Shown piece by piece: positions 1,598 through 46,014 of a stretch of 64,000 bases of DNA (the first letter of the stretch is position 1; every line of letters begins with the position of its first letter). The stretch spans positions 20,850-84,849 of IMG/VR virus record IMGVR_UViG_3300044691_000591; one strand, 5' to 3'. Under the pieces are notes generated by a model, which saw only the letters and a program-made list of their open reading frames with translations, was not told the origin of the DNA and did no database searches. Both the position numbers and the translations under genes were made by a program. The DNA is from a virus.

Positions 1598-1633
1598 GAG
1601 GAGATCCGTTTCTGCGAGACGGGAGGACGCGGG

Positions 1634-19992: not shown

Positions 19993-20562
19993 TCAGGACA
20001 GGGTGATGCCGTTGCTGTACCGGTTCACGCTCTTGCCGCCGGACGGGTTGGTCAGGGCCGTGAACGTCATCTCCATGGACGCGGCGTCGTTGGCGTTGAA
20101 CTTGCGGTCGCCGCGGTTGGTGACGTCCGCACGCGCGATCATGATCCGCTCGATCTTGTTGTCCATGACGACGTCCAGGCCCAGGGCCGTGGTGTAGGCC
20201 GTGGTCGTCGAGGCGGAGCCGAAGGCCACGAAGGCGCCCGTACCGGCCCCGGAGGCGTTCATGTCGGAGGCCTTGACCGCGTAGTAGAGCTGCAGGGTTG
20301 CGGCCGTGGTCTCCAGGAACGTCATCTTGAACGTCTGCTGGCGGTTCTTCACCCGGGTGATGACCGGCGAGTTCTCGCCCCAGGCGTCGATCTCGGTGCG
20401 GTTCTCGCCCAGGCTCTCGTCCAGGCCGTCGGTGGAGATGTAGCCCAGGTCCACCCACGGGGTCGCCCACGCCGTGAAGGGGTCGGCGGGGAAGGCGGTG
20501 CCGACGACGGCCATGTAGGCCTTGCCGGTGACACCGATGATCACATTGTCCGCTGTGCCCAC
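19993..20562 (-). CDS. Major tail tube protein
   Basis: 189 residues, beta-rich: VTGKAYMAVVGTAFPADPFT, DLGYISTDGLDESLGENRTE, VKNRQQTFKMTFLETTA. This pattern (a start-to-finish single tube domain with a DGL/ENRTEI loop) is typical of siphophage tail tube subunits, which polymerise around the tape measure. A GTG start with GAGGAGG five bases upstream indicates strong translation. It directly precedes the chaperone genes, as usual. Confidence 0.88.
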   Translation of the reverse strand: MGTADNVIIGVTGKAYMAVVGTAFPADPFTAWATPWVDLGYISTDGLDESLGENRTEIDAWGENSPVITRVKNRQQTFKMTFLETTAATLQLYYAVKASDMNASGAGTGAFVAFGSASTTTAYTTALGLDVVMDNKIERIMIARADVTNRGDRKFNANDAASMEMTFTALTNPSGGKSVNRYSNGITLS

Positions 20563-20572
20563 GAGGGCCTCC

Positions 20573-27365: not shown

Positions 27366-29054
27366 ATGCCGCTGCCCCTGGACGACGCCCCCTGGCCGCC
27401 GCCGGACCTCAACCCGGTGTGGAACTCGCTGCAGGTGTGGCACGCCTGGTATGCGGGGCTGCCCAAGGACCTGCAGTCCGTGTACGGGGGTGTGGCCACC
27501 GCGGGATCGTCGCCGCTGGCCCGGCAGTTCTTCGACATGGACAAGCCCGGCTCCAACCAGGTGTCCGTGGTCGCGCGCACGTTCTGGGGCGAGCCGATCC
27601 CGCCTGGTGAGCGGCGCGTCAAGTTGCACATTCCGCTGCCGGGCGACATCTCGGAGCTGTCGGCGTCGTTGCTGTACTCCGAGCTGCCGCAGATCCGGGC
27701 CGCGGACACCAGCGGCCTGGGCACGGCGACGACGGACCGCATTGCCCGTTACCTGGACGACCGTGGCCACGCCACCCTGCTGCAGGGCGCCGACACTGGC
27801 TCGGGGCTGGGCGGCGTCTATCTGCGGGTGGTGTGGGACGCGACGCTGCGCGATCACCCGTGGCTGACCGTGGTGCACCCGGACATGGCCGTCCCGGAGT
27901 GGCGCTGGGGCTGCCTCACCGCGGTGACGTTTTGGCAGACTGTGCAGCAGGACCCGTCGGGCACCGAGGAGTGGCGGCTCCTCGAATACCACACCCCGGG
28001 CCTGATCGAGTACGGCCTGTACAAGGGATCGCTGACGGAGATCGGCGAACGCCTGCCCCTCGCCGCACACCCCAAGGGCGTGGAGCTGATGGGGCAGCTC
28101 ACCGACAAGACGCCGGGCCGCGAGCAGCAGGTCACCGGCGTCGACAAGCTCCTGGCCGTGTACATCCCCAACATGCTCCCGAACCGGGTGTGGCGTACCG
28201 TGCCCGGCTCCGAGCCGCTGGGGCGCTCGGACTACACGGGCATCGAGCAGCTCTTCGACTCCCTGGACGAGACGTGGACGTCGTGGATGCGGGACCTGCG
28301 CCTCGCCCGCTCCCGGATCATGATCCCGCAGTCGATGCTGGAGACCGACGGCCCGGGGCAGGGGGCGATCTTCCGCGACAAGGAAGTGTTCGTGCAGATC
28401 AACAGCCTCGCCGACGGCACCAGCGGCGAGGCCATCACCATGAACCAGTTCCAGATCCGCGTGAAGGAGCACGAGGACACGTGCACCGCGATCGTCAACC
28501 AGGTCCTGCGGTCCGCCGGCTACTCATCGCAGTCCATGGGCGCGGACAAGGGCATGGTCGCGGTGACGGCCACGGAGATCGCCGCCCGCAAGGAGCAGTC
28601 CCTCGCCACCCGGGACACGAAGATCCTGTACCAGCGTCCGGCGCTGGATCAGGTGTTGAAGGTGCTGCTGGCCGTGGACGCGAAGTGGTTCAAGGCTGCC
28701 GTGGACCCGACGGCGGACCTGACCATCGCGTGGCCGGACGCGGTGCAGGCCGACCCTCAGTCCCAGGCCACCACGCTGTCGTTCCTGAAGGCCGCCTCCG
28801 CAGCATCCACGGACACCATGGTGCGGATGCTGCACCCGGAGTGGGAGGACATTGAGGTCGCCGAGGAGGTGGCCCGCATCCGCGAGGAGTCCGCACCGCC
28901 GGTCACCCTCACCGCCCCTGCTGCACAGCCGACAGGGCAGGTTCAGCAGCAGGGCCAGGAACCGGGGCAGGCGGAGGAGGGCACGGCGGCCTCGGCGTGG
29001 GCGGACCAGGCCGATTCGGAGGGAGCAGCCCAGCCGGGGGCTGCGGCGGCGTAG
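27366..29054 (+). CDS. Portal protein
   Basis: 562 residues. The opening PDLNPVWNSLQVWHAWYAGL, then FFDMDKPGSNQVSV and LHIPLPGDISELSASLLYSE, match actinophage portals of the SPP1 gp6 type. LPNRVWRTVPGSEPLGRSDY and FDSLDETWTSWMRDLRLARS form the clip/stem region. IVNQVLRSAGYSSQSMG and TEIAARKEQSLATRDTKILY form the long helices near the crown. The C-terminal 45 residues are Gln/Ala-rich and flexible. It follows the terminase by 19 bases. Confidence 0.92.
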   Translation: MPLPLDDAPWPPPDLNPVWNSLQVWHAWYAGLPKDLQSVYGGVATAGSSPLARQFFDMDKPGSNQVSVVARTFWGEPIPPGERRVKLHIPLPGDISELSASLLYSELPQIRAADTSGLGTATTDRIARYLDDRGHATLLQGADTGSGLGGVYLRVVWDATLRDHPWLTVVHPDMAVPEWRWGCLTAVTFWQTVQQDPSGTEEWRLLEYHTPGLIEYGLYKGSLTEIGERLPLAAHPKGVELMGQLTDKTPGREQQVTGVDKLLAVYIPNMLPNRVWRTVPGSEPLGRSDYTGIEQLFDSLDETWTSWMRDLRLARSRIMIPQSMLETDGPGQGAIFRDKEVFVQINSLADGTSGEAITMNQFQIRVKEHEDTCTAIVNQVLRSAGYSSQSMGADKGMVAVTATEIAARKEQSLATRDTKILYQRPALDQVLKVLLAVDAKWFKAAVDPTADLTIAWPDAVQADPQSQATTLSFLKAASAASTDTMVRMLHPEWEDIEVAEEVARIREESAPPVTLTAPAAQPTGQVQQQGQEPGQAEEGTAASAWADQADSEGAAQPGAAAA

Positions 29055-31699: not shown

Positions 31700-31861
31700 A
31701 TGGAGACCGTCGTGACGGTGCAGGCGCGCAGCGAGGCCGAGGCTGAGCGGTGGCTGGAGAAGCTGCGCACGATCGGACTGGAGCCCGTGTCGGCGCCGAA
31801 GCAGCCGGTGGGGCGCGACAGGTGGATGGTCCGCGCCCGGCCCGCGACTCAGCCAGGTTGA
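31700..31861 (+). CDS. Small rightward protein in the gap before the transfer module
   Basis: 53 residues from the ATG at 31700 (the ATG at 31691 would add three). VVTVQARSEAEAERWLEKLR is a strand-helix unit, followed by TIGLEPVSAPKQPVGRDRWM, giving a possible small alpha-beta fold. Codon use is of coding type. It converges on, and overlaps by 13 bases, the end of the leftward gene at 31849. No clear ribosome site was found, so expression is uncertain. Confidence 0.5.
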   Translation: METVVTVQARSEAEAERWLEKLRTIGLEPVSAPKQPVGRDRWMVRARPATQPG

Positions 31862-32049
31862 TCGACGCGACTGCCGCTGTCCACGTCCACGCCGATCTTC
31901 TGCAGCTTCCCCCCGAACGACACCGTCGCGTTGACCACCGTCCCGCCGTCGGCCCCGGTCCGCATCGCGTCCTGCACGAACGCGGCCACCTCGTCCAGCG
32001 TCAGGAACTGGCCTCTGTCGGCCGCGTGCTCGACCTTCTTCTTCGCCAT
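31849..32049 (-). CDS. Small basic protein at the end of the transfer module
   Basis: 66 residues from the ATG at 32049 (AAKKKVEH start). LTLDEVAAFVQDAMRTGADG is an amphipathic helix, followed by a beta part (VVNATVSFGGKLQKIGVDVD). The start at 32049 has GAGG nine bases upstream. I do not recognise it. It is the last gene of the leftward unit that includes the Mrr and TraB-like genes. Confidence 0.6.
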   Translation of the reverse strand: MAKKKVEHAADRGQFLTLDEVAAFVQDAMRTGADGGTVVNATVSFGGKLQKIGVDVDSGSRVDQPG

Positions 32050-32098
32050 GCCCTCATCCTCTCGCGTCCACCGCGCCACCGTCCGGCGGTCGCGGGCG

Positions 32099-32731
32099 TC
32101 AGTGCCACGGTGCGGGGCCGGTCCGGGACGCCCAGGCGGCCAGGGCCTGCTCGTCGAACAGGCGCAGCCCGACGCGCCGGCCGAACGCGGCGGCCTGCTC
32201 GGTGAACGTGGACGTCGTCACCACTGCGGCGAGGTCTGCGCCGTGGATCTGCCGGTACGTGCCGTTGACCGCCTGCACCATCGGGGAGCGAACCGGGTTG
32301 CCGACGGCGTAGCGCTTGGCCTGGATCAGGATCCGGCGGCCGTCCGGGGTGGTGGCCAGTACGTCGGCGGCGAGGTCTCCTGCTCCGCCGACGACGGTGA
32401 CGTTGCGGCAGCCGTCGCGGCGGCACAGGTCGGCGAGGGCGTGCTCGAACTGGGTCGGGCTGAGCCGCCGGAAGTCCATGACGGGGCGCCGGCAGTAGGG
32501 CGCGATGGTGCGGCGCTGAGCGCGGTGCATCTTGATGTACACGAAGCCAATGGCGGTGGTGGCTGCGATTGCCGCAACGCAGATCATGATCTGCGGGTGC
32601 CGGGAGAGCCACAGTGCGGCGTCGAACAGGATCAGGGCGGCAATGATCAACATGGGGCCGGTGATCCGCTGGCGCTGTACGCGCCTGCGCAGTTGGGCTT
32701 TCGCCTGGCGCACGCGGAGAGGTGTGGTCAC
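32099..32731 (-). CDS. Membrane-anchored Mrr-type nuclease
   Basis: 210 residues from the GTG at 32731, whose start overlaps the translocase stop (GTGA). Two membrane segments lie at about residues 20-66 (MLIIAALILFDAALWL and MICVAAIAATTAIGFVYI). The rest is a Mrr-type PD-(D/E)xK nuclease: SPTQFEHALADL carries the leading Glu, GDLAADVLA the active Asp and RILIQAKRYA the Q-x-K. All three are present, so it may be active. This type is known from restriction enzymes acting on modified DNA and occurs near plasmid transfer genes. It could cut foreign or modified DNA, or nick at the transfer site; neither is shown. Confidence 0.8.
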   Translation of the reverse strand: MTTPLRVRQAKAQLRRRVQRQRITGPMLIIAALILFDAALWLSRHPQIMICVAAIAATTAIGFVYIKMHRAQRRTIAPYCRRPVMDFRRLSPTQFEHALADLCRRDGCRNVTVVGGAGDLAADVLATTPDGRRILIQAKRYAVGNPVRSPMVQAVNGTYRQIHGADLAAVVTTSTFTEQAAAFGRRVGLRLFDEQALAAWASRTGPAPWH

Positions 32732-34995
32732 GACTGGCTCATCTCGGGGACAGGCAGCCCGTACTCGCCGCTGGCGGCCGGGTTGCGGAGGATGGTGCCG
32801 TCCTTGACCAGGCGGCTGACCGTGTTCTCGACCGTCTTGCGGGCGACACCGGACTGGTCCGTGATGGCGTCCAGGTGCAGGTAACCGACGTCCAGACCGA
32901 TCGGGTCGCGGTACTCGCCCAGGACCGTGAGGATCTTCTCCTGCGCCGTCGGCTCCTTCGCCGCGGCCGGCTTCGCCTGACCGGGCGTCCACTTCGCGGC
33001 GCCGTCCTCATCCTCGTCTTCGGCGGCTGGCCCGACGGGGACCAGCGCGATCTCGCCGCGGTCCTCCCACTCGGGCCAGTCGGCGGGAATGACGATCTGC
33101 TCCGGATCGAACAGGCCGGCGGCGGACTCCAGGATCCACAGGCGCATCATCTCGGCGCGGTCGTCGGGCCCGACGGTGTAGCCGACGCCGAACGTGCGGC
33201 TGGGGTCGTCGTCGGGGACCGTCGGGTCGTAGATCAGAGTGTCGTCCTCGTCGCTCTTCCAGAACGCCGGGATCTTGGCGGGGTCGACGCCCGCGAACGC
33301 GTCGGGCAGGTCGACCCGGTTCCTCTGGTCGCTGTCGGAGCGCAGCAGGATCAGGGCGCCGCCGTAGAACACGTTGTCGCGGATGGAGGTGTCCGAGCCC
33401 ATCTTGTCGAGGTTCAGGATCTGCCCGCACAGGATCAGGATCAGGCCCAGTGAGCGGCCCTGCTCGGCCAGGGCGGCGATGATGAATGCCGCCTCGGCCT
33501 TGTTGGTTGCCTTCTCGCCGAGGAGCTGGGCGAACTCGTCCAGGACCACGGCGGTGTAGGGCATGTCGGCGGTCGGGACGAAGTTCTTCATCCGCAGCCG
33601 CTGCGACTGCTCGACGCGGTGCAGGAGGAGGGCGTAGGCCACGCGCAGGGCGCCCATCGCACCGTCGATACCGCAGCCGGGGTAGGTGGCCATGTCCTCG
33701 ACGTCGGGGTTGCTGGAGCCCTTGGGGTCGGCGTAGATGATCGCGACCCGGTTGACGTGGTAGCTGAGGCACAGGAGCTGCAGCGCCCCGCCCTTCCCGG
33801 AGCCGGTCACCCCGGCGATCAGGACGTGCCGGGCGCCCATCCTGGTGTCGTACAGCTGCACGCGGGCAGGGCGGCCGGAGATGCCGGTACCCAGGTTCAC
33901 GAACCCGTTGGCGTTGGCGAGCAGCGTCTCGGGGCCAGGCAGGGGCTGGCCGGCTTCCAGGGGTGAGCGGTCCATGAGCCGGAGCTTGGCCCGGCGGGGG
34001 TTGTTCGTGGGTTCGACGGACGTCAGCAGGGTGGTGGTGCGAAGTGCTCCGGCGATGCGGTATGAGTCGGGGGCGGTGACGGCGTCGGTGTCCTCGTCGG
34101 CGACGACCCATGCGGCGATGCCACCGGTTGCAGGGTCGGGGACGATGCCCTCCAGGTGGGTGCCGGGCATGCAGCCGCCCTTGTGGCCCACACGCCGCAG
34201 CCACAGTGCCTCCAGGGCGCTGTACTCGGCCACGTCGACGGTCGGCGCGACCACGTCGACGTGGATGTGGCGAGAGCTGGTGTGCGGACCGTCAATGAGG
34301 TGGACCCGCGCCTCGGGGACGCCGTAGACCCCGGACACGGTCTCGGCGGTGACCGAGACGGGGCGGCCGGGCATCGAGTGGATCGTGCCCTCCCACGCCT
34401 CCGGGCTGTAGCCGGTCAGGGTGAGGTGCTGGCCGGGGTGCGCGCCGTCCTCGCTGGAGATCCAGTCGTGCCAGTACTGCAGGACGTCGCGCTCCGGCGT
34501 CGGCTCTGGGACTGGGGCGGCGGGCGCGCGGTAGGCGGCGACCGCGCGGGGCTTGCGCAGGACGCGGCGCAGCGCGAAGTGGATGTAGCCGGTCGCGGAC
34601 CACCAGGCCACCGACACAAAGCCGGCCACGGAGGGCAGCGTCATCCAGCCGGCGGCCAGGGAGTCGATTCCGGGCCAGCCGTACTGCGTCGCGGTGGCCG
34701 CCGCGGTGGCGGTCGCGATCGCGGAGACCAGGAACGGCTCGCGGTGGGCGCGCACGATGTCACCGCCCGGCAGGGCGTCCAAGTGCTCATCGGACAGCAG
34801 GTGCATGTAGTTCGCGCCGGCGGCCAGGGCGGGTACGGCCAGCAGGCAGCTGACGGTACTCGCGGCCTGACCGTCCAGCAGCGGCAGGGTCAGGGCGGTC
34901 GCCAGCGGGGCGGCGACCTGAGCCACGGCAAACCGCTTCTCGGCGGCAGGGTTCGGCAGCGCCTTGGCCGCGGGCGTGGTGTCGTTGGTGGTCAC
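32728..34995 (-). CDS. TraB/FtsK-type DNA translocase
   Basis: 755 residues from the GTG at 34995 (AGGAG seven bases upstream). Three N-terminal membrane segments lie at about residues 30-60, 88-106 and 115-141. The motor follows with Walker A GVTGSGKGGALQ (near residue 398) and Walker B AVVLDEFAQLL (near 483). A C-terminal winged-helix-like domain (LHLDAITDQSGVARKTVENT) resembles the part of Streptomyces TraB that reads 8-bp repeats. Length and layout match conjugative plasmid TraB rather than cell-division FtsK. It would pump double-stranded DNA through a membrane pore, between hyphae. It is translationally coupled to the Mrr nuclease. Confidence 0.85.
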   Translation of the reverse strand: MTTNDTTPAAKALPNPAAEKRFAVAQVAAPLATALTLPLLDGQAASTVSCLLAVPALAAGANYMHLLSDEHLDALPGGDIVRAHREPFLVSAIATATAAATATQYGWPGIDSLAAGWMTLPSVAGFVSVAWWSATGYIHFALRRVLRKPRAVAAYRAPAAPVPEPTPERDVLQYWHDWISSEDGAHPGQHLTLTGYSPEAWEGTIHSMPGRPVSVTAETVSGVYGVPEARVHLIDGPHTSSRHIHVDVVAPTVDVAEYSALEALWLRRVGHKGGCMPGTHLEGIVPDPATGGIAAWVVADEDTDAVTAPDSYRIAGALRTTTLLTSVEPTNNPRRAKLRLMDRSPLEAGQPLPGPETLLANANGFVNLGTGISGRPARVQLYDTRMGARHVLIAGVTGSGKGGALQLLCLSYHVNRVAIIYADPKGSSNPDVEDMATYPGCGIDGAMGALRVAYALLLHRVEQSQRLRMKNFVPTADMPYTAVVLDEFAQLLGEKATNKAEAAFIIAALAEQGRSLGLILILCGQILNLDKMGSDTSIRDNVFYGGALILLRSDSDQRNRVDLPDAFAGVDPAKIPAFWKSDEDDTLIYDPTVPDDDPSRTFGVGYTVGPDDRAEMMRLWILESAAGLFDPEQIVIPADWPEWEDRGEIALVPVGPAAEDEDEDGAAKWTPGQAKPAAAKEPTAQEKILTVLGEYRDPIGLDVGYLHLDAITDQSGVARKTVENTVSRLVKDGTILRNPAASGEYGLPVPEMSQS

Positions 34996-34999
34996 AGTC

Positions 35000-35368
35000 C
35001 TACTCCTGCCGGTACCAGGTGCGGTTGGCCATCTCGACGGGGGAGCGGTCGCGGGCTTCCTTGATGCCGCCGTGGGTGGTGACGGTCGCCTGCTCGGCGG
35101 CGACCGCCGCGCGGGATGCCTCGTCGGCGGCGTTGGCGTAGGCGAGCGCGGCCGTGGACACGCCCTGCATGATTCGCGAGACCTCGCGGGTCTCGGCAAC
35201 GGTCGCCGGATCGACCTTGAGGGCGGCGGTCTGCTCGGCGATGCGCCCGGTGTCCTTGGCCTGGGCGTCCATCGCGGAGGCCATCTTCTTGTGCCTCTGG
35301 GTGGCGCGCCGCACGTCCCGGGCCAGGGCCCGCGTCTCGCGCAGCAGTTCGCCATAGGTCAGTGCCAC
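35000..35368 (-). CDS. Coiled-coil protein with C-terminal HGGI motif
   Basis: 122 residues, GTG start. Nearly all helix and Ala/Arg/Glu-rich coiled coil (RETRALARDVRRATQRHKKM, ADEASRAAVAAEQATV). It ends in THGGIKEARDRSPVEMANRT followed by WYRQE. The adjacent 555-residue protein ends with the same kind of sequence. It is placed between that gene and the translocase, so a scaffold or adaptor for the transfer complex is likely. I know no named family. Confidence 0.7.
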   Translation of the reverse strand: MALTYGELLRETRALARDVRRATQRHKKMASAMDAQAKDTGRIAEQTAALKVDPATVAETREVSRIMQGVSTAALAYANAADEASRAAVAAEQATVTTHGGIKEARDRSPVEMANRTWYRQE

Positions 35369-35369
35369 G

Positions 35370-37037
35370 TCAGCCCCCCTGCTTGTCCATGTAGAACTCC
35401 CGCTCGGCGGGCGTGGTCAGAGGCGAGTCGACGACTGCCCGATAGATGCCGCCGTGCCGGGTCTCGGCGTTGGCGGCCAGGACGCGCACCGCTTCACTGC
35501 CGCGCTGGGCGCTCTTCTCGATCTCCTCGGCCCTCAGGCGCAGCACCTGGGATCGTTCCGCGAGGCGCGACAGAAGCGCGACGATCCGGGCACCCCCATG
35601 GACGCTCTTCGCGTTCTCGGCCAGGCGCTGCGCCCGGGTCGCCATCTCCACGGCCTGCAGGCGGGTGGCCTTGCTGCCCTCGGCGACGCGGCCCATCGCG
35701 GCCTTCTTGTCACCCAGGCGGCGTTCGAAGGCCTTGAGGGTGCGGACCTCGCCGCGGCTCATCGTGTGGCTCGCCCCGTCGGCGACGAACTCGACGGCCT
35801 TGTCTCCGACGGAGGTCACCCGTGCGGGCTCTGCAGCAGTCGGGGCCGGCTTCTTGGCGAGGTCGACGGTCGACCCGCTGGCCGGCGGCAGCTTCGGAGC
35901 GGCTGACTTCTTGGGCTTGACGGCGTTGCGGGCCCGGGTGTCGCTCATCTTCTTGCCCTCCGCCTTGTCGGCGGCGGTGCGGTCGTCCCAGCCGTCGACA
36001 GCGCCGTCCTTGTAGGCCCTGGCCTGTCCGACGGTCGCGGCGACGCGGGTGCCGTCGCGGTACCCGGCCTCCCGCGCGGGGCGGGTGCGCAGCTTCGGAG
36101 CGGCGGCCGGCTCGGTTGTCGCGGCCGGGCTCGGCTTGGCCGCGGCGCTGGTGTCCTTCACCAGATCGACGGGCGCAGTGTCGTCGGGCTTGATCGCAGC
36201 GGCGGTCTTGGTGTTCAGGCTCTTCGGGTCGGCCTTCTTCGTCAGGTCCGGTCCGTCGGGGCGCGCGGCAGCGGGCGTCGAGGGTTCCGGCGTCTTGGCT
36301 GCGGTGCCGCCTTTCGCGCTCGCGGGCCCCGCGGTCTTGGCGTCCGCCCCCTTGGGGCTCGGGCCCTTGGCGGTCTTGGTGTCGCGGTAGTCCCGGTCGT
36401 CGTTCTTGGAGACCGTGTCCGCTGTCGCGGCCTTCGCGTTCGACGTCTTCGCGGCGCTACTGTCCGCCTTCTTCAGATCCTTGTTGTCCCGGGCTGCAGT
36501 GTCGGCCTTCGACGTCCTGGCGTCGGAGGTCTTGGCGTCCGTCGCGGCCTTGCGGTCGCGGTTGGTCCTGCCCTGCTGCGTCTTGTTCCGGAGGTCGGCC
36601 AGCTTGCTGTCGCGGGTGGCGTGGGCCTTGCCGTCGTGCCGGTGCGTGCGCTCGGCCTTGTTCGTGCCGGTGCTGGTAGCGCCGGAGACCCGGGCCTCAG
36701 TGATGGTGTGGGTCCGCTTGACCGCTGTACCGCCGCGGGCCAGCCGGGCGGCCAGGGCGTGCACCAGGGCGGCCACGGCGCTGCCGCGGTTGTTGTCGCC
36801 TGGACTGGCCTTGCCGTTCTTGCCGTTGCCGCCCTTGGCGCTGGCCTCCTCGGAGACCTCGCCCATGGTCGCCGTGGTCCCCAGCGGCTTCACCGGCCGG
36901 GCGGGCTCGACCGGCGTCAGGATCCGCGCAAGCGGGCCCGGCGCCGTGGCCGGGGCGGCTGCAGCAGCGGGTCCTGCGGGCGCGGCCGACTGCTCGGTCA
37001 CACCGGCCGGGACGGGCGGCGCGGTCGCTGTCGCCAT
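35370..37037 (-). CDS. Long disordered Ala/Lys/Thr-rich protein ending in a HGGI motif
   Basis: 555 residues from the ATG at 37037 (AGGAG upstream). Residues 1-80 are Ala/Pro-rich. Residues about 100-270 are a highly charged Lys/Asp/Thr/Ala stretch with repeated short words such as TKTA, ADTA and KTSN and no predicted fold. The C-terminal 150 residues form coiled coil (ERRLGDKKAAMGRVAEGSK, QRLAENAKSVHGG). It ends with ETRHGGIYRAVVDSPLTTPA, shared with the neighbour at 35000. The basic tract could bind DNA or polyanionic wall polymer. Streptomyces transfer loci carry spread proteins of poorly conserved sequence, but I cannot name this one. Confidence 0.7.
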   Translation of the reverse strand: MATATAPPVPAGVTEQSAAPAGPAAAAAPATAPGPLARILTPVEPARPVKPLGTTATMGEVSEEASAKGGNGKNGKASPGDNNRGSAVAALVHALAARLARGGTAVKRTHTITEARVSGATSTGTNKAERTHRHDGKAHATRDSKLADLRNKTQQGRTNRDRKAATDAKTSDARTSKADTAARDNKDLKKADSSAAKTSNAKAATADTVSKNDDRDYRDTKTAKGPSPKGADAKTAGPASAKGGTAAKTPEPSTPAAARPDGPDLTKKADPKSLNTKTAAAIKPDDTAPVDLVKDTSAAAKPSPAATTEPAAAPKLRTRPAREAGYRDGTRVAATVGQARAYKDGAVDGWDDRTAADKAEGKKMSDTRARNAVKPKKSAAPKLPPASGSTVDLAKKPAPTAAEPARVTSVGDKAVEFVADGASHTMSRGEVRTLKAFERRLGDKKAAMGRVAEGSKATRLQAVEMATRAQRLAENAKSVHGGARIVALLSRLAERSQVLRLRAEEIEKSAQRGSEAVRVLAANAETRHGGIYRAVVDSPLTTPAEREFYMDKQGG

Positions 37038-37059
37038 CACGGACTCCTCTCTCGATTGA

Positions 37060-37165
37060 CCCCCCACCCACCCCCCACCCGACCTGAGAGAACAGGGTCG
37101 GGGCTCTGACCTGCACGGGAGAGCCGTATGCGCGCTCTCTTGGCGGGTGGGGGGTGGGTGGGGGG
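37060..37165. repeat. 21-bp perfect G-rich inverted repeat
   Basis: The C-rich arm at 37060-37080 is the exact reverse complement of 37145-37165 (C6-A-C3-A-C6-A-C3 against G3-T-G6-T-G3-T-G6). The loop is 64 bases and includes GACCTGAGAGAACAGGGTC, which has its own small arms. The strand has G-runs that could also form a G-quadruplex. It occupies the only long untranslated gap between two transfer genes. It may be a terminator, a regulatory stem or a cis-acting transfer site. Confidence 0.75.
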
Positions 37166-37171
37166 AGATGA

Positions 37172-37741
37172 CTAACGGCTGCGTGCGGTCAGCAACTTCT
37201 TCGCCTTGCCGCCGACCAGCACGACACCGATCGACCCCAGGACGATCAGCCCGACGTTCGAGCCGGTCCCCGCCCCACCGCCGGTGCTGCTGGTGCTCGA
37301 CGCGTCGGCCAGGGCGGGCGAACCGGTCGCCGGGTAGATCGAGCCGCAGTCCGACACCCCGCCGAAGTTGTTGCCGGCCTTCGCGATGCACGCCTCCACC
37401 GCGAGACGACGAGCCCGCTGAGCAGGGGTTTCCTGCGCAGCGGCCTTCGCCTGGGCGGCGGCCTGCTGCTCCTGGGCCAGCTGCACCCTCGCCGCATCCA
37501 CGGCGACCTGGCCGGCGCGGATATGCGCGTTGGCCTGGTTGGCCTCGTACTGCGACCACGTGAACATGCCAGTGGCCGCCACGGCCGCGAAGCCAAGACC
37601 GAGACCGGCCTTGGCGCGAGGGCTGAGCTTGGCCGGCGGCGGGGGCTCCGTCGGCTTCGGCGTCTGGTAGGGCTGATAGGGCATCGAGCTGATGTTGTAG
37701 CCGGGATCGTTGTAGGGGGACTGGTAGCGGTACTCGGTCAT
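37172..37741 (-). CDS. Spd-like membrane protein with two membrane segments
   Basis: 189 residues from the ATG at 37741, which overlaps the DUF2637 stop (ATGA). A Tyr/Pro/Gln-rich N-terminus (RYQSPYNDPGYNISSMPYQP) precedes a segment at about residues 46-63 (GLGLGFAAVAATGMFTW). A coiled coil with Ala/Gln follows, then two Cys and a second segment near the end (NVGLIVLGSIGVVLVGG). This topology resembles small membrane proteins in Streptomyces plasmid transfer operons, thought to let DNA cross septa. Assigned by topology and context only. Confidence 0.65.
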   Translation of the reverse strand: MTEYRYQSPYNDPGYNISSMPYQPYQTPKPTEPPPPAKLSPRAKAGLGLGFAAVAATGMFTWSQYEANQANAHIRAGQVAVDAARVQLAQEQQAAAQAKAAAQETPAQRARRLAVEACIAKAGNNFGGVSDCGSIYPATGSPALADASSTSSTGGGAGTGSNVGLIVLGSIGVVLVGGKAKKLLTARSR

Positions 37742-38637
37742 TGCTCTTCTCCATTCAGGGCTGGGACATCTGCGCGGTCGAGGATCTCCGCGCGGATCGT
37801 CTTCGCGACGGTGTCCGAAGGCAGCCCGTGGCCGGCTCGGTCGATCGCTTGGGCGAACTCGTTGGCGGTCGGCTGGCGCCGGAGGCGTTGGAACTCGGCG
37901 TGGAAAATCGGCTTGGCGATCTCCACCCACTCGTCGAGTGGGCGACGGGGCGGTCGCTTCCCGGCGGCGGAACGGGGCGCCTTCGGTCGACGAGTCGTCG
38001 GCGGCTTGGCCGGCTTCTCGTCGACGGAAGGTGCGTCGGAACGGTCGACGGAAGCCGTCGGGTCGTCGACGGTTCGGGCCGGTTCCGACGCGACGGGAAG
38101 CGTCGGTTCGACGCCGCTCCCGTCGACGGGAGCCCGTGTTCCGTCGGTCGTTCCGTCGTCGGCAGCGGACTGATCCGTCGCAGCATCCGTCAATGACTCG
38201 GTCGGCTCCCGTCGCGGGGTGAGGAACTTCTTGATCTGTCCCATGAGGACTGCGAATGACAAAAGCGCGCCGCAAGGTGGGACCGCTGCGACGACGTAGG
38301 TCATGGGCGCGGCGCCTGCTCCGACGCCGGCAACGTTGAGGGCAACGGAGCCGACGGAGCCGATCAGAGTCAGGCAGATGGCCCACCCGTCAGTCCGGCG
38401 GAGCAGGTTGGCGACGAGGACCATCACCTCGCCGAGGACGATGAAGGTGTCGACGGTGCCGGGCCACGCCCAGGCGCGAGCTGCTCTGAGGCCGTGGCCG
38501 CTGGCAACGTCGTGGAGGTGCTCGTAGGAGAGCCAGAACGCTGCGGCGGTCAGGGCGATGGAGAGGATGACCGCGAGCAGCATGAGGCGCCGGATAGTCT
38601 CCGGCGAAGCGACGGGACTGTCGTCGGTCTCGGTCAT
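37738..38637 (-). CDS. DUF2637 membrane protein, spread-associated type
   Basis: 299 residues from the ATG at 38637. The N-terminal half has the DUF2637 pattern: FWLSYEHLHDVASGHGLRAA, then AWPGTVDTFIVLGEVMVLVA and four hydrophobic segments to about residue 130. This family is common beside TraB-like genes in Streptomyces plasmids and integrative elements. A Asp/Ser/Pro/Thr-rich linker (about 150-225) follows. A C-terminal winged-helix-like part with RRPLDEWVEIAKPIFHAEF resembles DNA-binding regions of plasmid proteins. It overlaps its downstream neighbour by 4 bases. Confidence 0.8.
   Translation of the reverse strand: MTETDDSPVASPETIRRLMLLAVILSIALTAAAFWLSYEHLHDVASGHGLRAARAWAWPGTVDTFIVLGEVMVLVANLLRRTDGWAICLTLIGSVGSVALNVAGVGAGAAPMTYVVAAVPPCGALLSFAVLMGQIKKFLTPRREPTESLTDAATDQSAADDGTTDGTRAPVDGSGVEPTLPVASEPARTVDDPTASVDRSDAPSVDEKPAKPPTTRRPKAPRSAAGKRPPRRPLDEWVEIAKPIFHAEFQRLRRQPTANEFAQAIDRAGHGLPSDTVAKTIRAEILDRADVPALNGEEQ
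37986..38129. repeat. GTCGACGG octamer cluster in the DUF2637 gene
   Basis: Exact GTCGACGG occurs at 38020-38027, 38044-38051, 38065-38072 and 38122-38129, with GTCGACGA at 37986-37993. On the coding strand each is a Val-Asp pair in the same GTC GAC codons within the disordered linker. TraB proteins read short direct octamers, so this could be a recognition array, but the coding bias alone may explain it. Confidence 0.4.
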
Positions 38638-38639
38638 GG

Positions 38640-39530
38640 TCAGCTCCCCTGCTTGGCGGCGGTGAGCGCCTGCTCGTTGTGCCCCCGGATGAAGTCGGCC
38701 AGGGGTCCGGTGTTCTCGAACCACTCGGTGCTGCCGACGCGCTGGTCGGCGAAGCGCTTGTGCATGGCCTGCTCCATGCGGCGGTCACCGGCAATGAGCA
38801 GGACGATGTCGCTGGTGCGCAGCGAGAGGGCGCTCACCCGGGCGCGGAGGCTGCTGGTCGTGCCGATCTTGACGCGGCTGCCGTTGCCGATGAAGTAAAC
38901 GTGGGCCTTGTGCTTGCCCTCCGGGACCGGCCAGTTGAAGCGCGGCTCTGCCGGCTTGGCAGCCATGGGCGCGGTCGCCGGCGCGTCGAGGTTGAGGTGG
39001 GCGAGCGCAGCCAGCCGCCTTTCCAGCCGAGCCTTCTGCCTCTTCGCTTCGAGCGCTACGCCGCGCTGCTTGTTCCGCTCGATCAGGAGGTGGTCGATCT
39101 CGGACTGATCGTCCGGGTGCAGGGACTGGGTCTTCATCCAGGCGCGCCACAGCCACGTCACGGGGATGGCGAGCATCGAGATCACCGCGCCGTCCCAGGG
39201 TCCAGTGCGAGGCCAGCCCGTCCAGGTGATCAGCGAGAGGATGATCACCTGGAGCAGCAGACCGCCGCGGCGGCCGAGAAAGGCGCCCTCGGAGTCGTAG
39301 CGGTTGTCCCACTCGACCCAGGCGCACCAGAGCCAGAGCAGGCCAAAGATGCCGCCGGCGAGATACATCTGGACTTGGTCCTGCCACGTCTTGGCCCATG
39401 GAGCGAGCAGGGACCCAAGGAGCCCCGCCTCGCAGGTGGCAGTCACGAACATCAGGACGGCGGTGATCCATCCGGTGACTGCTGCCTCGTGGTCGCGGGA
39501 CTCCTTGGTGGGCTGCTCGATCGTGCTCAC
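38640..39530 (-). CDS. Membrane protein with C-terminal GIY-YIG-like (T5orf172) domain
   Basis: 296 residues from a GTG at 39530 (AGGAG nine bases upstream). Four hydrophobic segments lie between about residues 20 and 130 (GWITAVLMFVTATCEAGLLG; YLAGGIFGLLWLWCAWVEW; LLLQVIILSLITWTGW; AVISMLAIPVTWLW). A basic coiled coil (KQRGVALEAKRQKARLERR) follows. The last 90 residues, AHVYFIGNGSRVKIGTTSSL, RARVSALSLRTSDI, MEQAMHKRFADQRVGSTEWF, fit the T5orf172/MUG113 GIY-YIG nuclease group with Tyr, Lys-Ile-Gly and Arg. It could nick DNA at the membrane, perhaps with the translocase. Activity is unproven. Confidence 0.75.
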   Translation of the reverse strand: MSTIEQPTKESRDHEAAVTGWITAVLMFVTATCEAGLLGSLLAPWAKTWQDQVQMYLAGGIFGLLWLWCAWVEWDNRYDSEGAFLGRRGGLLLQVIILSLITWTGWPRTGPWDGAVISMLAIPVTWLWRAWMKTQSLHPDDQSEIDHLLIERNKQRGVALEAKRQKARLERRLAALAHLNLDAPATAPMAAKPAEPRFNWPVPEGKHKAHVYFIGNGSRVKIGTTSSLRARVSALSLRTSDIVLLIAGDRRMEQAMHKRFADQRVGSTEWFENTGPLADFIRGHNEQALTAAKQGS

Positions 39531-39669
39531 GTGTTGCTGCTCCTATTCGGGCGACGTGGATGCGTGCTCTGCGGGGTGGCGCCCGTCCCGCCGGGGGTGC
39601 GGGCCGGGCGCCGGGCGTCCAGTCCGGCCGCGGGGGACGGAATCGGGCTGGACGCGTCTTGGGGCTGCC

Positions 39670-39894
39670 TCAGTGGCTGAGGCAGCGGTCGTGGTTGGAC
39701 ATGGTGCAGGCGGCGCGGCGGGCGCGGCGCTGGGGCATGATCTCGGCGTAGTAGGCGTCGGAAGCCTTCTGGCGGGCGGCCGCGTCGGCGGCTTGGCGCC
39801 GGTTGTCGGCGGCGGCTTCCTGGCGGCGCTTCTCGGAGTCGTGGTAGCTGGTGTCGGTGGCGGGTGCCTTGGGTGCGAACGGGTTCCAGGCCAT
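39670..39894 (-). CDS. Small Ala/Arg-rich protein of the transfer unit
   Basis: 74 residues; MAWNPFAPKAPATDTSYHDS, then an Ala/Arg/Gln helix, ending CTMSNHDRCLSH. The two Cys and two His near the C-terminus could bind metal. It lies 139 bases upstream of the GIY-YIG gene; that gap holds no gene I can support. It is co-directional with the other transfer genes. No family recognised. Confidence 0.55.
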   Translation of the reverse strand: MAWNPFAPKAPATDTSYHDSEKRRQEAAADNRRQAADAAARQKASDAYYAEIMPQRRARRAACTMSNHDRCLSH

Positions 39895-39897
39895 GCG

Positions 39898-40218
39898 TCA
39901 GTCCTCCATTGCGGTGAGCTGGGGCAGGTGTCCGCCGTTGAGTTCCCGCAGCTGGTTGAGGGCGGTGCGGAAGGCGTCGGCGGCGTCGGGGCGTTGGGCG
40001 TAGCTGGCGTCGACGAGGTTCTGGGCGAGCTGGTTGACGCGGGCGACGGCGGCGGTGACCTGGTCGCGCTTCTCTTCGGCCTGACTCGCGAGCCAGAGGG
40101 CGTGGAAGTCGACGGCACCGTCGGCTGCGGTGTACTGGTCGAGGACGGCTTTGATCTCCGCGTCGGTGGCGGGGCGTCCGCCGGGCTGGTCTGCGCTGTA
40201 GATCGTGGGCTGGGTCAT
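39898..40218 (-). CDS. Helical protein of unknown function
   Basis: 106 residues; TIYSADQPGGRPATDAEIKA, AVLDQYTAADGAVDFHALWL, EEKRDQVTAAVARVNQLAQN, then a Leu-rich end (LNQLRELNGGHLPQLTAMED). Mainly amphipathic helices with no Cys. The start at 40218 overlaps the preceding small gene's stop (ATGA). It could be a partner in the transfer unit, but nothing more can be read. Confidence 0.6.
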   Translation of the reverse strand: MTQPTIYSADQPGGRPATDAEIKAVLDQYTAADGAVDFHALWLASQAEEKRDQVTAAVARVNQLAQNLVDASYAQRPDAADAFRTALNQLRELNGGHLPQLTAMED

Positions 40219-40358
40219 CGGTGGGCCTTCTTCGTGGCGTGCACGGTCGGGTGGCTGGGCGCGTAGGTGTGGGCGCTGGCGGTTCCGGCGTGGCTGTAGC
40301 ACCAGATCGCGGCGCCGATGATCGCGGCGACGGCGCACTTGGCGAGGAAGGCCCTCAT
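40215..40358 (-). CDS. 47-residue membrane or secreted peptide
   Basis: 47 residues: RAFLAKCAVAAIIGAAIWCY is one hydrophobic segment after a basic start, then SHAGTASAHTYAPSHPTVHA and a KKAHR tail. A GTASA-H stretch could be a signal cleavage site, leaving a short His-rich peptide. It overlaps both neighbours (ATGA), which supports it as a real gene although it is short. Small membrane peptides are common in plasmid spread operons. Confidence 0.6.
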   Translation of the reverse strand: MRAFLAKCAVAAIIGAAIWCYSHAGTASAHTYAPSHPTVHATKKAHR

Positions 40359-40768
40359 CGCGCACCGCCTGCCTGGTTGTAGAGCACGGCACCGTCGGGG
40401 TAGCTGAGGCCGTAGGCGGCGGCGAGTTTGCGGGCCATGTCTTCGACGCCGTCCTCGAAGCCGTCCGCGTCTTCGCTGCCGGTGAGGTAGTGGTCGACGT
40501 AGGTGAGGAGCACGTCCTGGGCGGTGTCGTTGTCGGCGTCGAGGGCGTCTCCGAGGTAGGTGAGTGCGGCGTTGAGGGTGTCGGCGTGGTCTTGGTCGCT
40601 GGCTTCGAGGTGGTCGCGGGCGGCGGTGAGGAGTTCGGCGAGGGTGACGCCGTCGATGTCGGTGTGGCCGCCGGGTGGGCAGCCGGGGGCGAGGAATGCG
40701 ATGTCGTTGGCGTGGCGGGCGATGATCGCTTTGAGGCGGGGGCTGGCGTCCGGGTCGGTGGCGGTCAT
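40355..40768 (-). CDS. Acidic helical protein of unknown function
   Basis: 137 residues; many Asp and Glu. SPRLKAIIARHANDIAFLAP, then GVTLAELLTAARDHLEASDQ and FEDGVEDMARKLAAAYGLSY. The first part resembles an immunity- or adaptor-like helical fold, but no family is clear. It overlaps both neighbours. The start at 40768 leaves a RBS-like G-rich stretch upstream. It shares no similarity with the adjacent paralogous pair. Confidence 0.6.
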   Translation of the reverse strand: MTATDPDASPRLKAIIARHANDIAFLAPGCPPGGHTDIDGVTLAELLTAARDHLEASDQDHADTLNAALTYLGDALDADNDTAQDVLLTYVDHYLTGSEDADGFEDGVEDMARKLAAAYGLSYPDGAVLYNQAGGAR

Positions 40769-41016
40769 GCCGGGCTCCCGAGCTGGTTGGGCTCCAGGGA
40801 GAAGAACAGGACCGTCGGGGGCTGGCCGCCAGTGGCGTCCTTCATCACGAAGGCGCGGACGACCTCGTACACCTCGGCGCGGGTCTGGCCCGGCTCCGGG
40901 GTGAAGGTGGAGCGCCAGGTGCCGGAGATTTCGCCGTCCCGGGTGGGCCACTGTGCGGACATGACCCAGTGGTGGCTGCCCTGCGGGTTCGGGCCGGGAG
41001 GCGTCGGGGTGCTCAT
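40765..41016 (-). CDS. Paralogue 1 of a tandem pair
   Basis: 83 residues; HHWVMSAQWPTRDGEISGTW, YEVVRAFVMKDATGGQPPTV, then LFFSLEPNQLGSPA. It aligns with the next upstream gene's product over the whole length: HWVMSA against HWIMTA, GTWRST against GTFDGS, and VLFFSLEPNQLG against VLFFSLTPDAIG. The fold looks alpha-beta with a final strand. The two are co-translated through an ATGA overlap. Function unknown. Confidence 0.7.
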   Translation of the reverse strand: MSTPTPPGPNPQGSHHWVMSAQWPTRDGEISGTWRSTFTPEPGQTRAEVYEVVRAFVMKDATGGQPPTVLFFSLEPNQLGSPA

Positions 41017-41249
41017 GCCGCACCGCCGATGGCGTCCGGTGTGAGCGAGAAGAACAGGACGACGAACTCGGCACTGCCGATCTTGTCGGCCACGATGTCG
41101 CGGATGACGTTGTAGCTGCTGGTGTGGGTGTGCATGCCGGGGACGGCGTTGATCGATCCGTCGAAGGTTCCCTGGAGTCCACGGGGCGATAGGGCCGTCA
41201 TGATCCAGTGGAGTTCGATCTCGGGGAGCCCTGCCTCGGCGGCGTTCAC
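41013..41249 (-). CDS. Paralogue 2 of a tandem pair
   Basis: 78 residues from a GTG at 41249; ELHWIMTALSPRGLQGTFDG, then NVIRDIVADKIGSAEFVVLF and FSLTPDAIGGAA. It is the upstream member of the pair with the gene at 40765. About a third of positions agree, so the duplication is old. The overlap of start and stop codons keeps the pair translationally coupled. It may form a heterodimer with its partner. Confidence 0.7.
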   Translation of the reverse strand: MNAAEAGLPEIELHWIMTALSPRGLQGTFDGSINAVPGMHTHTSSYNVIRDIVADKIGSAEFVVLFFSLTPDAIGGAA

Positions 41250-41485
41250 GCCGCACCGCCGGGCAGGTCCTCGCCGAACGCCCGGTCGGCCGCGAACTGG
41301 AACCGGTCGTAGCTGCCGTAAGCCCCGAGGGCGTGGTCGACGTCAGCGTCGGTGGGCCAGGTGGCGGGGACCTCGGTGAGCGGACGCGACGGCGGGGCCG
41401 GAAGGGCGGTGACCCGAGCGCCGGAGCTGGGCTCTGACGGCGAGGGGGTGACGTGGTCAATGAGGTTGGCGCTACGATCTGCCAT
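41246..41485 (-). CDS. First gene of the leftward transfer operon, unknown
   Basis: 79 residues; MADRSANLIDHVTPSPSEPS, a Pro/Ser-rich disordered start, then PATWPTDADVDHALGAYGSY and FQFAADRAFGEDLPGGAA, which is helical and acidic. It is the promoter-proximal gene of the unit that leads into the TraB-like gene. The TGCAACCA repeats upstream are placed to control it. Confidence 0.55.
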   Translation of the reverse strand: MADRSANLIDHVTPSPSEPSSGARVTALPAPPSRPLTEVPATWPTDADVDHALGAYGSYDRFQFAADRAFGEDLPGGAA

Positions 41486-43756: not shown

Positions 43757-44647
43757 GTGAGCCTTGAAGCGATGGACTGGGTGTGGAATCACTCCCGCTC
43801 CAAAGGTGTCGGCCGCATGGTGATGCTGGCCCTCGCCGACAAGGCGCTGCCCGCGACGGCGGACTGCCGGGCCTACGGCTCCTACCGCTTCCTGGCACAG
43901 CGGGCGAACTGCACCCAAGGGGCGATCACTGAGGCGCTCGACGGACTGTATTCGCTGGGCGAGTTGGAATTGCTGCCGGAGAAGGGGCCGATGGGCGCGG
44001 CGACGTACCGGCTGCCGAAAGCGGTTGGCCATACCCGTCCCGTGCGCGGCAATCGCTCGGCTCACCCGAGCGATTCAGACGCGAAGGCTCGAAAGGAATC
44101 GCTCGGCTCAGCCGAGCAGCAGGTGCACGGCTCAGCCGTGCGATCTGAAGCCGAATCGCTCGGCTCAGCCGACCACAACACCACCACCCCACCAAAGACC
44201 ACCACCTCCGCGCCTACCGACCCGCCTGCCTCTGGTGACACCAAGGGAGGAGGTGGAGGAGACCAGCAACAGGAAGCCGAGGCCTTCCTCCAGTCGCTGC
44301 CTTCACCTTGGACGGCAGGACGGAAGACCGCCCGCGAGCTCGCCCCGCTGCTCCTGGAACGGACAGGCGAACAGGGCTGGCAACTGGACGCCGACCTCGC
44401 CGCGCAGCTGAGCAAGAACGCCACCGGCGTCAACCACCCCGCCTCCGTCCTGCGGGCCCGCATCGACGACCTCCCGAAGAAGCCCACCGCCAAAACCCGG
44501 GCCTCGCCATCACTCCCGCCTTGGTGCGGCCAGTGCGGCGACAAGGACCCGGCCGCCGAGACCGACGCCGCCCGGCGCTTCCACCACCTCAACGACGGCA
44601 GCAGCCAACGCTGCCACTGCCACCCCGCACACCAGAAAGCAGCCTGA
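43757..44647 (+). CDS. Replication initiator with internal iterons
   Basis: 296 residues from the GTG at 43757. Residues about 5-90 form a winged helix-turn-helix of the phage replication type (DWVWNHSRSKGVGRMVMLAL, YRFLAQRANCTQGAITEALD). Residues about 95-175 are a low-complexity linker whose codons contain the palindromic iterons. The C-terminal part has helices and a Cys/His finish (WCGQCGDKDP and RCHCHPAHQ) that may bind zinc. It directly precedes and overlaps a DnaB-type helicase, as O precedes P in lambda. It should bind the internal iterons and load the helicase. It has no endonuclease motif, so theta replication is likely. Confidence 0.8.
   Translation: MSLEAMDWVWNHSRSKGVGRMVMLALADKALPATADCRAYGSYRFLAQRANCTQGAITEALDGLYSLGELELLPEKGPMGAATYRLPKAVGHTRPVRGNRSAHPSDSDAKARKESLGSAEQQVHGSAVRSEAESLGSADHNTTTPPKTTTSAPTDPPASGDTKGGGGGDQQQEAEAFLQSLPSPWTAGRKTARELAPLLLERTGEQGWQLDADLAAQLSKNATGVNHPASVLRARIDDLPKKPTAKTRASPSLPPWCGQCGDKDPAAETDAARRFHHLNDGSSQRCHCHPAHQKAA
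44051..44173. repeat. Palindromic iterons, candidate replication origin
   Basis: Four related palindromes lie in the initiator gene. AATCGCTCGG and CCGAGCGATT flank CTCAC at 44051-44075. GCTCGGCTCAGCCGAGC at 44101-44117 is perfect. GCACGGCTCAGCCGTGC is at 44125-44141. AATCGCTCGGCTCAGCCGAC is at 44154-44173. Centres lie 46, 24 and 33 bases apart. A strand-biased C/A-rich tract follows at 44174-44214. They encode the linker words RSAHPSD, ESLGSAE, HGSAV and ESLGSAD. Confidence 0.75.
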
Positions 44648-46014
44648 TGAACCGCGACGAAGCACCGCCCTACCCGGACGAACAGGAGCAGCAGCGCGGC
44701 GACCGAGTCCCCCCGTGCAACCTCCACGCCGAGCAGTGCGTGATCGGCGGCATGCTCCTCTCGAAGGAAGCCATCACCGAAGCCACCGAGATCATCGGCC
44801 CCGGCGACTACTACCGGCCCGCCCACGAGTTCATCCACCGCGCCGTCCTCGACGTGTACGGGCGCGGCGAACCGGCCGACAAGGTCACCGTCGCCGCCGA
44901 GCTGGAGAAGACCGGCCGCACCCGGGAAGCCGGCGGCCCGGACTACCTGAACCTGTGCCTGTCCGTCACCCCGTCAGCGGCGAATGCGGGCTGGTACGCG
45001 GAGGAGGTGCTGCGCACCGCGATCCTGCGCCGCATCATCGGCGCGGGCACGGAACTGATCGGGATCGGGTTCCAGCCCGGCGCGGGGACGGCGAACGAGG
45101 CCCTGGACCGTGCCGCCGCAACACTGCAGTCGCTCACGGCCACAGTGGGCATGTCGATGACCAGCCGCGAGAAGCCGCTCCGCGACGTCCTCGCCGCGAC
45201 GATGGACAACTACGACTCCGACGACGGCAACTACCTCCCGCTGCCCTACAAGGACCTGCGCATCAGGGTCCCGATGGAGCCCGGCGACTTCGCGGTCGTA
45301 GCCGCCACCCCCGGGACGGGCAAGACGACGATCCTCACCGACATGGCCCGCTGCCTGTCGATCAAGCACAACCGCAGGTCGTTCTTCGGCAGCATGGAGA
45401 TGCCTCACACCCAGATTGGCCAGCGCATCCTGTGCGCCGAAGCGCGCGTCGACCTGAACCGCTTTCGCACCCGGGCCCTCACCGAGGAAGACCGGCAGCG
45501 GGTCGACCAGACGCAGAAGCGGATCGAGAACTATCCGCTGGTGATCGACGACTCCACCGCCGTGCCGGTGTCGCGCATGCGTACCCGCCTGCGCCAGCTC
45601 CAGGCTGCAGGCGAACTGCCGGAGCTGTACATCGTGGACTACCTGCAGATCGCCAAGGCGGAGGCTGAGTCGAACGCGAACCGCACCATCCAGGTCGACC
45701 ACATCGCCCGCAGCCTGCGGAACCTGGCCATGGACTTCGGGATCGTCGTGGTGGCCGCAGCGCAGCTGAACCGGCAGACGACGTCGCGGGCCGACCGGGT
45801 GCCGCAACTGTCGGACCTCCGCGAATCCGGCGGCATCGAGCAGGCGTGCACGATCGCCCTGCTGCTGGACCGGCCGGAGGTCTACGAGAAGGAGACTCCG
45901 CGCGCGGGGGAGATGGACATTCACGTCGCCAAGAACCGCATGGGCAGCACGGGCCGGCTGACCGTGGCCTACCAGGGCCACTACTGCCGCGCCGTCGACA
46001 TGGCTGCGGACTGA
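44647..46014 (+). CDS. DnaB-type replicative helicase
   Basis: 455 residues. The N-terminal DnaB domain (residues 25-130) has LHAEQCVIGGMLLSKEAITE. The helicase core has ATPGTGKTTIL (Walker A, near residue 222) and LYIVDYLQIAKAE (Walker B, near 330), then VVVAAAQLNRQTTSR and DLRESGGIEQACTIALLLDR, all family marks. It would form a ring that unwinds DNA at the iteron origin just upstream. The start overlaps the initiator stop. Length is normal for phage DnaB proteins. The host loader or an initiator-borne loader is needed; none is obvious here. Confidence 0.92.
   Translation: MNRDEAPPYPDEQEQQRGDRVPPCNLHAEQCVIGGMLLSKEAITEATEIIGPGDYYRPAHEFIHRAVLDVYGRGEPADKVTVAAELEKTGRTREAGGPDYLNLCLSVTPSAANAGWYAEEVLRTAILRRIIGAGTELIGIGFQPGAGTANEALDRAAATLQSLTATVGMSMTSREKPLRDVLAATMDNYDSDDGNYLPLPYKDLRIRVPMEPGDFAVVAATPGTGKTTILTDMARCLSIKHNRRSFFGSMEMPHTQIGQRILCAEARVDLNRFRTRALTEEDRQRVDQTQKRIENYPLVIDDSTAVPVSRMRTRLRQLQAAGELPELYIVDYLQIAKAEAESNANRTIQVDHIARSLRNLAMDFGIVVVAAAQLNRQTTSRADRVPQLSDLRESGGIEQACTIALLLDRPEVYEKETPRAGEMDIHVAKNRMGSTGRLTVAYQGHYCRAVDMAAD

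What the first reader, a model, noticed from the sequence alone, without database searches (positions are those of the whole stretch)
31849..41485. TraB/Spd-type DNA transfer module inside a complete siphophage gene set
The window holds capsid, portal, terminase, tail and lysis genes, and also a leftward operon with a 755-residue TraB/FtsK translocase with three membrane segments and a winged-helix end. A DUF2637 protein, other Spd-like membrane proteins and two membrane nucleases lie beside it. Plasmid-phages are known in Streptomyces, but this set suggests an element that can leave as a virion or pass between mycelia by TraB.
Basis: partly seen in the sequence, partly recalled or inferred. 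Interest (0 to 1): 0.85.

Follow-up and report, generated by a model that had tools for sequence, protein, structure and literature searches.

The report
Phage genome carrying a conjugation module
A temperate phage of Streptomyces-type bacteria carries, beside a full set of virus-particle genes, a DNA-transfer operon like those that plasmids use to pass between mycelia; elements of this mixed kind are known, but here the operon also holds an undescribed inverted-repeat site that looks like the pump's DNA address label and can be tested.

Summary
The 84.8-kb contig encodes a full siphophage gene set. The leftward operon has a 755-aa FtsK/TraB-fold translocase (N-terminal membrane helices, motor, C-terminal winged helix), a DUF2637 protein, small membrane proteins, and membrane-anchored Mrr and GIY-YIG nucleases.

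The idea is not new. pZL12 is a published plasmid-phage with a tra locus, and 21 of the 40 best plasmid records with this translocase also carry a phage portal gene. In a motor tree the translocase forms its own deep clade, apart from FtsK, EccC and pIJ101 Tra.

What is new here: (1) this element has a phage serine integrase and no detected ParA/ParB, so it probably integrates. (2) Phages with related structural genes carry three unrelated translocases, so transfer looks selected. (3) Between two operon genes (37060-37165) lies the strongest inverted repeat of the contig (22-bp perfect arms, 62-bp spacer). It recurs in most relatives with changed but still complementary arms, shows no RNA-strand bias, and arm divergence follows the translocase's winged helix more than its motor. 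I propose it is clt, the transfer start site.

Transfer, binding and plaque formation remain untested.

The parts
32728..34995 (-). TraB-like FtsK-fold DNA translocase, 755 aa: N-terminal membrane helices, alpha/beta adaptor, RecA-like motor (Walker A GVTGSGKGG at residue 395), C-terminal winged helix about 684-746
35000..35368 (-). g76, 122-aa helical protein, next to the translocase in nearly all relatives; related to the C-terminal domain of g77
35370..37037 (-). g77, 555 aa, low-complexity N-terminus and confident C-terminal two-helix hairpin; co-conserved with the translocase
37060..37165 (.). Candidate clt: inverted repeat with perfect 22-bp arms and 62-bp spacer, in the 134-bp gap between g78 and g77
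37172..37741 (-). g78, 189-aa predicted membrane protein, Spd-like by position
37738..38637 (-). g79, DUF2637 protein with four hydrophobic segments
38640..39530 (-). g80, GIY-YIG (T5orf172/MUG113) nuclease domain with N-terminal hydrophobic segments
32099..32653 (-). g74, Mrr-type endonuclease with N-terminal membrane anchor; same place in L005-L008, L024, L030
31849..32049 (-). g73, 66-aa protein at the 3' end of the operon (70% identical copy in L008)
39670..41485 (-). g81-g87, short leader genes of the operon; g85 is the best conserved
27366..29054 (+). portal protein
26093..27346 (+). terminase large subunit
22803..23663 (-). major capsid protein
19993..20562 (-). major tail protein
13955..19045 (-). 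tape measure protein
1268..2494 (-). holin and endolysin
43817..46014 (+). O-like replication initiator and DnaB-type helicase

Best explanation
This is a temperate siphophage of a Streptomycetaceae host carrying a working mycelial DNA-transfer module. As a prophage (probably integrated by its serine integrase, then excised as a circle) it can form virions, or express the tra operon. In that case the translocase assembles as an FtsK-like ring in the hyphal membrane with DUF2637 and small membrane partners, its winged helix grips the inverted-repeat arms at 37060-37165 (clt), and it pumps double-stranded element DNA into a touching hypha. Shown by computation: the gene content, predicted fold, conserved module, the site, and arm divergence following the winged helix. 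Inferred: integration, ring assembly, binding and transfer.
For: Fold and family. The same block sits beside phage genes in many Streptomyces plasmid-phages, including pSLE1, pSAM1, QHH-9511 and europaeiscabiei. Phages with related structural genes carry three unrelated translocases: ours/QHH type, pZL12 type in NBC_01483, and a third in L115, which fits selection for transfer. Inverted repeat: strongest of the contig, 22 versus 15 and 14; same place by strict search in 26 of 45 regions, imperfect in most others; own-arm complementarity 18.1 versus 10.7 across elements; G.T 17 and A.C 18 mismatches, so no RNA-strand bias; arm divergence correlates with winged-helix divergence after motor correction (0.55, 0 of 500 permutations) but not the reverse (0.00). 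pZL12 and NBC_01483 have a GGGGC-repeat inverted repeat at the matching spot despite an unrelated translocase. Known clt loci lie by tra and contain direct and/or inverted repeats (PMC3583192). Serine integrase 45% identical to that of phage SV1, no ParA/ParB.
Against: No transfer, binding or plaque data. The translocase forms its own deep clade rather than joining pIJ101 Tra. No GntR-type tra regulator was found in the contig, though many relatives have one. The arm/winged-helix correlation rests on 29 related sequences and permutations do not remove shared ancestry. Some relatives, such as QHH-9511 and pSAM1, have weak or imperfect arms.
Confidence: 0.66

Rival explanations
1. The module is a cargo remnant: the phage recently captured it from a plasmid, virions do all the spreading, and the tra genes are passive or decaying.
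For: The closest translocases by sequence outside phages are Kitasatospora plasmid or chromosomal copies at 63-67%; QHH-9511 shares a 70% identical capsid but only a 45% identical translocase, so the module has moved. No GntR regulator was found.
Against: All module genes are open and motifs intact; the site and the gene block are kept; three different translocases occur in the same phage structural group, which is not expected of neutral cargo.
Confidence: 0.17
2. The inverted repeat is an RNA structure in the tra mRNA (attenuation, processing or translation control of g77), not a transfer site.
For: It lies in the operon just before the ribosome-binding site of g77 and folds strongly as RNA (z -5.8 to -7.4); the pairs covary.
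Against: Mismatch types show no G.U preference and sense and antisense fold equally well on average (-67.7 versus -68.7 kcal/mol); arms track the winged helix; no credible Rfam match.
Confidence: 0.2
3. The translocase serves the phage itself, for example segregating or packaging phage DNA or excluding other elements, rather than mating.
For: FtsK/SpoIIIE-like proteins are known in phages as accessory genes (phrog_1358); no close homologue exists in 50,697 phage records, so its role in phages is unstudied; membrane nucleases lie beside it.
Against: A separate terminase is present; the same block occurs on plasmids and contigs without neighbouring phage genes; pZL12 transfer is reported to need its tra genes.
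Confidence: 0.12

Closest known systems
pZL12/phiZL12 plasmid-phage of Streptomyces (NC_013420; Zhong 2010, cited in PMC3583192 and PMC4487206)
   Same: About 90 kb, siphophage genes plus an FtsK-type tra gene with adjacent genes beside the terminase; inverted repeat next to the gene upstream of the translocase
   Different: Unrelated translocase (no BLAST match), few shared genes, has ParA/ParB; ours has a serine integrase and no ParA/ParB detected
pSLE1 and pSAM1 plasmid-phages
   Same: Same translocase family (42-43% identity) and same operon order, ending at the terminase
   Different: pZL12-type structural genes; pSLE1 has ParA/ParB (PMC4487206)
Streptomyces sp. QHH-9511 plasmid NZ_CP046906 and S. 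europaeiscabiei NZ_CP107843
   Same: QHH-9511: structural genes 31-70% identical and syntenic, same module type; europaeiscabiei: same order with portal 51% and translocase 41% identical
   Different: QHH-9511 carries ParA/ParB and a tyrosine integrase
TraB of pSVH1, Tra of pIJ101 and TraA of pWTY27 with clt
   Same: Membrane FtsK-like motor, C-terminal winged helix (pSVH1), repeat-containing site near tra (PMC3583192, PMC12857230)
   Different: Separate deep clade; 23.9% identity over the motor to pIJ101 Tra; candidate site is a long perfect inverted repeat rather than mainly short direct repeats
Streptomyces phage SV1 and its serine integrase
   Same: Integrase 45% identical
   Different: SV1 is a 38-kb phage; the translocase search found no match in any phage record

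Membership tests
Streptomyces TraB/Tra conjugative translocase | FtsK/SpoIIIE motor with Walker motifs | tested here: met
Streptomyces TraB/Tra conjugative translocase | N-terminal membrane segments and C-terminal winged helix | tested here: met
   Predicted only:
Streptomyces TraB/Tra conjugative translocase | Groups with characterised TraB/Tra in a tree | tested here: inconclusive
   Own clade 99/99, deep forks unresolved. NCBIfam TraB model gives 46.8 bits, more than the pZL12 tra protein (20.2) and with no match at all for pIJ101 Tra, so its cut-off is no fair test
Streptomyces TraB/Tra conjugative translocase | Co-encoded Spd-type membrane proteins | tested here: met
   DUF2637 and small membrane proteins in a conserved block; Spd function not tested
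Streptomyces TraB/Tra conjugative translocase | Binds a cis-acting clt of repeats near tra | tested here: inconclusive
   Candidate site found; binding not testable here
Streptomyces TraB/Tra conjugative translocase | Needed for mating transfer | not testable with these tools
   needs bench work
Chromosomal FtsK | Clusters with FtsK and has the FtsK gamma domain | tested here: not met
   Separate from three Streptomycetaceae FtsK; no FtsK gamma hit in the Pfam scan
Plasmid-phage (pZL12 kind) | Phage structural genes plus tra genes on one element | tested here: met
Plasmid-phage (pZL12 kind) | Autonomous plasmid with partition genes | tested here: not met
   No ParB_N or ParA-type AAA_31 match; relatives L005-L007 do have ParB
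Plasmid-phage (pZL12 kind) | Circular form | tested here: inconclusive
   The two contig ends hold the halves of one initiator gene, and the joined protein matches phage initiators weakly across the join
Plasmid-phage (pZL12 kind) | Forms plaques and virions | not testable with these tools
   metagenome contig
AICE (actinomycete integrative conjugative element) | Integrase plus TraB-like gene, no virion genes | tested here: not met
   Integrase present but a full virion gene set too

The most novel reading that the evidence does not exclude
A large, undescribed class of Streptomycetaceae elements, phage and plasmid alike, uses a deep-branching TraB family with its own type of clt: two inverted polypyrimidine/polypurine arms whose sequence co-evolves with the translocase's winged helix, so each element pumps only its own DNA. 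This one is an integrating phage that spreads by virion or by hyphal contact.
Probability: 0.5. Interest if true: 0.78.

Novelty: new variant of a known kind. Interest (0 to 1): 0.6.

Why it matters
Phages with a second, virus-free route between cells blur the line between virus and plasmid, and would let prophage genes spread inside mycelia without killing them. The candidate clt makes this testable: it predicts a 106-bp DNA segment that should bind the translocase and mobilise any plasmid that carries it, and its fast-changing matched arms offer a natural series for learning how TraB winged helices choose DNA.

Tried and rejected
A phage-collection tblastn with the translocase gave nothing, so phage precedent had to be sought through plasmid records. 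An exact-pattern scan for a viral contig holding the sequence next to the end junction found none, leaving circularity inferential. The NCBIfam TraB cut-off was dropped as a test because the experimentally used pZL12 and pIJ101 proteins also fail it. Rfam miRNA matches to the repeat are all under gathering scores and several occur on both strands; judged chance. Tandem-repeat search for classic 8-bp direct clt repeats found no strong array; in this gap it flagged only the 11-bp repeats inside the two arms. The integrase block is shared with L103, a phage contig in which the translocase family was not found, so the integrase and tra module need not be inherited together. No TraB-bearing relative searched has this integrase in its element; the one weak hit (27%) lies on another contig.

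Full report
WHAT IS THERE. The window is bases 20850-84849 of an 84,849-base viral metagenome contig. The siphophage set is real and complete in kind: terminase, portal, major capsid, connector, major tail, 1696-aa tape measure, minor tail proteins, endolysin and holin. The leftward operon 31849-41485 contains the 755-aa translocase, DUF2637, small membrane proteins, a GIY-YIG nuclease and an Mrr nuclease, the last two with N-terminal hydrophobic segments. A second assembly contig holds operon, portal, terminase and capsid together at 100% identity (L004).

THE TRANSLOCASE. A model from 36 homologues has mean pLDDT 82, with N-terminal helices, an alpha/beta region, a RecA-like motor and a C-terminal winged-helix region. 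The best PDB folds are the FtsK motor and the conjugation coupling protein TcpA. Averaged hydropathy over the family shows four N-terminal segments, not three. In a motor tree it belongs to a strongly supported separate clade, apart from chromosomal FtsK, EccC, pIJ101 Tra and pZL12's protein; deep forks are unresolved. So it is not FtsK, and works like TraB, but close kinship with classic TraB is not shown.

THE MODULE AND ITS CONTEXT. Relatives outside viral contigs were found only in Streptomycetaceae-type actinomycetes: 135 plasmid records and 35 genome loci. The block g78-g77-g76-translocase is nearly always kept. g76 resembles the C-terminal helical hairpin of g77. Comparing the 40 best plasmid hits with portal searches, 21 also carry a phage portal, including pSAM1 and pSLE1. 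[quoted passage not shown] the pZL12 paper itself was not held.

CASSETTE EXCHANGE. Our structural genes match QHH-9511 (capsid 70%), yet the translocase is 45% identical, while a Kitasatospora plasmid with no phage genes near its module has one at 67%. NBC_01483 has a portal 53% identical to ours with a pZL12-type translocase. L115, with the same structural type, has a third kind and its own GntR-like gene and small membrane proteins (the GntR call there is by eye). Repeated presence of different transfer pumps at one place fits selection for transfer.

LIFESTYLE. A large serine recombinase, 45% identical to the phage SV1 integrase, lies left of the window at contig 14862-16442. No ParB_N or ParA-type match was found, although relatives L005-L007 have ParB. 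The integrase block (genes between g8 and g34) is syntenic in L103, so it is unlikely to be a chimeric join. The two contig ends carry the halves of one replication-initiator gene broken at repeats. The joined protein matches phage initiators across the join, weakly. The molecule is thus probably circular or circularly permuted. A second initiator with a DnaB helicase is at 43817-46014.

THE CANDIDATE CLT. The 134-bp gap between g78 and g77 holds an inverted repeat with two perfect 22-bp arms and a 62-bp spacer, the strongest such repeat of the contig (22 versus 15 and 14) and far above shuffles. A strict ungapped search of the region upstream of the translocase found a repeat at this place in 26 of 45 regions; most others have an imperfect version. 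The arms differ greatly between elements but stay complementary: own-arm score 18.1 versus 10.7 for arms from different elements. In nine close relatives six pairs change on both sides, 0 of 500 shuffles reaching that. Within the helices G.T and A.C mismatches are equal (17 and 18) and sense and antisense fold alike, which argues for a DNA site rather than an RNA. Arm divergence correlates with winged-helix divergence after correcting for the motor (0.55, 0 of 500) while the motor adds nothing after the winged helix (0.00); in a multiple regression the winged helix has the largest weight for both arms. pZL12 and NBC_01483 have 17- and 19-bp GGGGC-repeat arms at the equivalent spot despite an unrelated translocase. 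Published clt loci vary but contain direct and/or inverted repeats beside tra, and TraA of pWTY27 footprints on part of one (PMC3583192). I therefore propose this site as clt. Limits: the sequences are related, the permutation test does not remove ancestry, and binding is untested.

MECHANISM. Most likely, excised element DNA is gripped at the inverted arms by the winged helices, the motor ring in the membrane pumps double-stranded DNA to a touching hypha, and DUF2637 and other small membrane proteins help onward spread (roles by analogy with TraB/Spd systems, PMC12857230). The membrane nucleases may trim, resolve or defend; the Mrr gene's position next to the translocase is kept in several viral relatives, but its role is open.

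VERDICT. Observation confirmed; interpretation right in outline but not new; new variant because of the integrating lifestyle and the candidate clt.

Noticed in passing
contig ends (L002:1-400 and window 63400-64000): The ends hold the N- and C-terminal halves of one replication-initiator gene with a shared 27-base repeat, so the contig probably closes to a circle at an iteron-like site.
   Followed up: partly
window 32099-32653 and relatives L005-L008, L024, L030: A membrane-anchored Mrr-type nuclease is kept next to the translocase in several viral or phage-bearing relatives; in QHH-9511 a GIY-YIG nuclease takes that place.
   Followed up: partly
window 35000-37037: g76 resembles the C-terminal domain of g77 (shared HGG...DSP motif); the two neighbours may form a paired helical complex with the translocase.
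   Followed up: partly
NC_013420 62989-63079 (pZL12): The pZL12 inverted repeat lies inside the annotated start of gp072; comparison with NBC_01483 suggests that start is annotated too far upstream.
   Followed up: no
L115:19458-21515 and L192: A phage contig with the same structural type carries a third, unrelated FtsK/TraB-like translocase with its own GntR-like gene and 2-TM proteins, and no comparable inverted repeat.
   Followed up: partly
L003:77-577 (contig 20077-20577, left of the window): A 166-aa helix-turn-helix protein is 60% identical to one in pZL12, although the two genomes share almost nothing else.
   Followed up: no
window 3610-8521: A rightward cassette that by eye includes a glycosyltransferase-like and an epimerase-like gene lies between the lysis and tail genes; possibly surface modification.
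   Followed up: no
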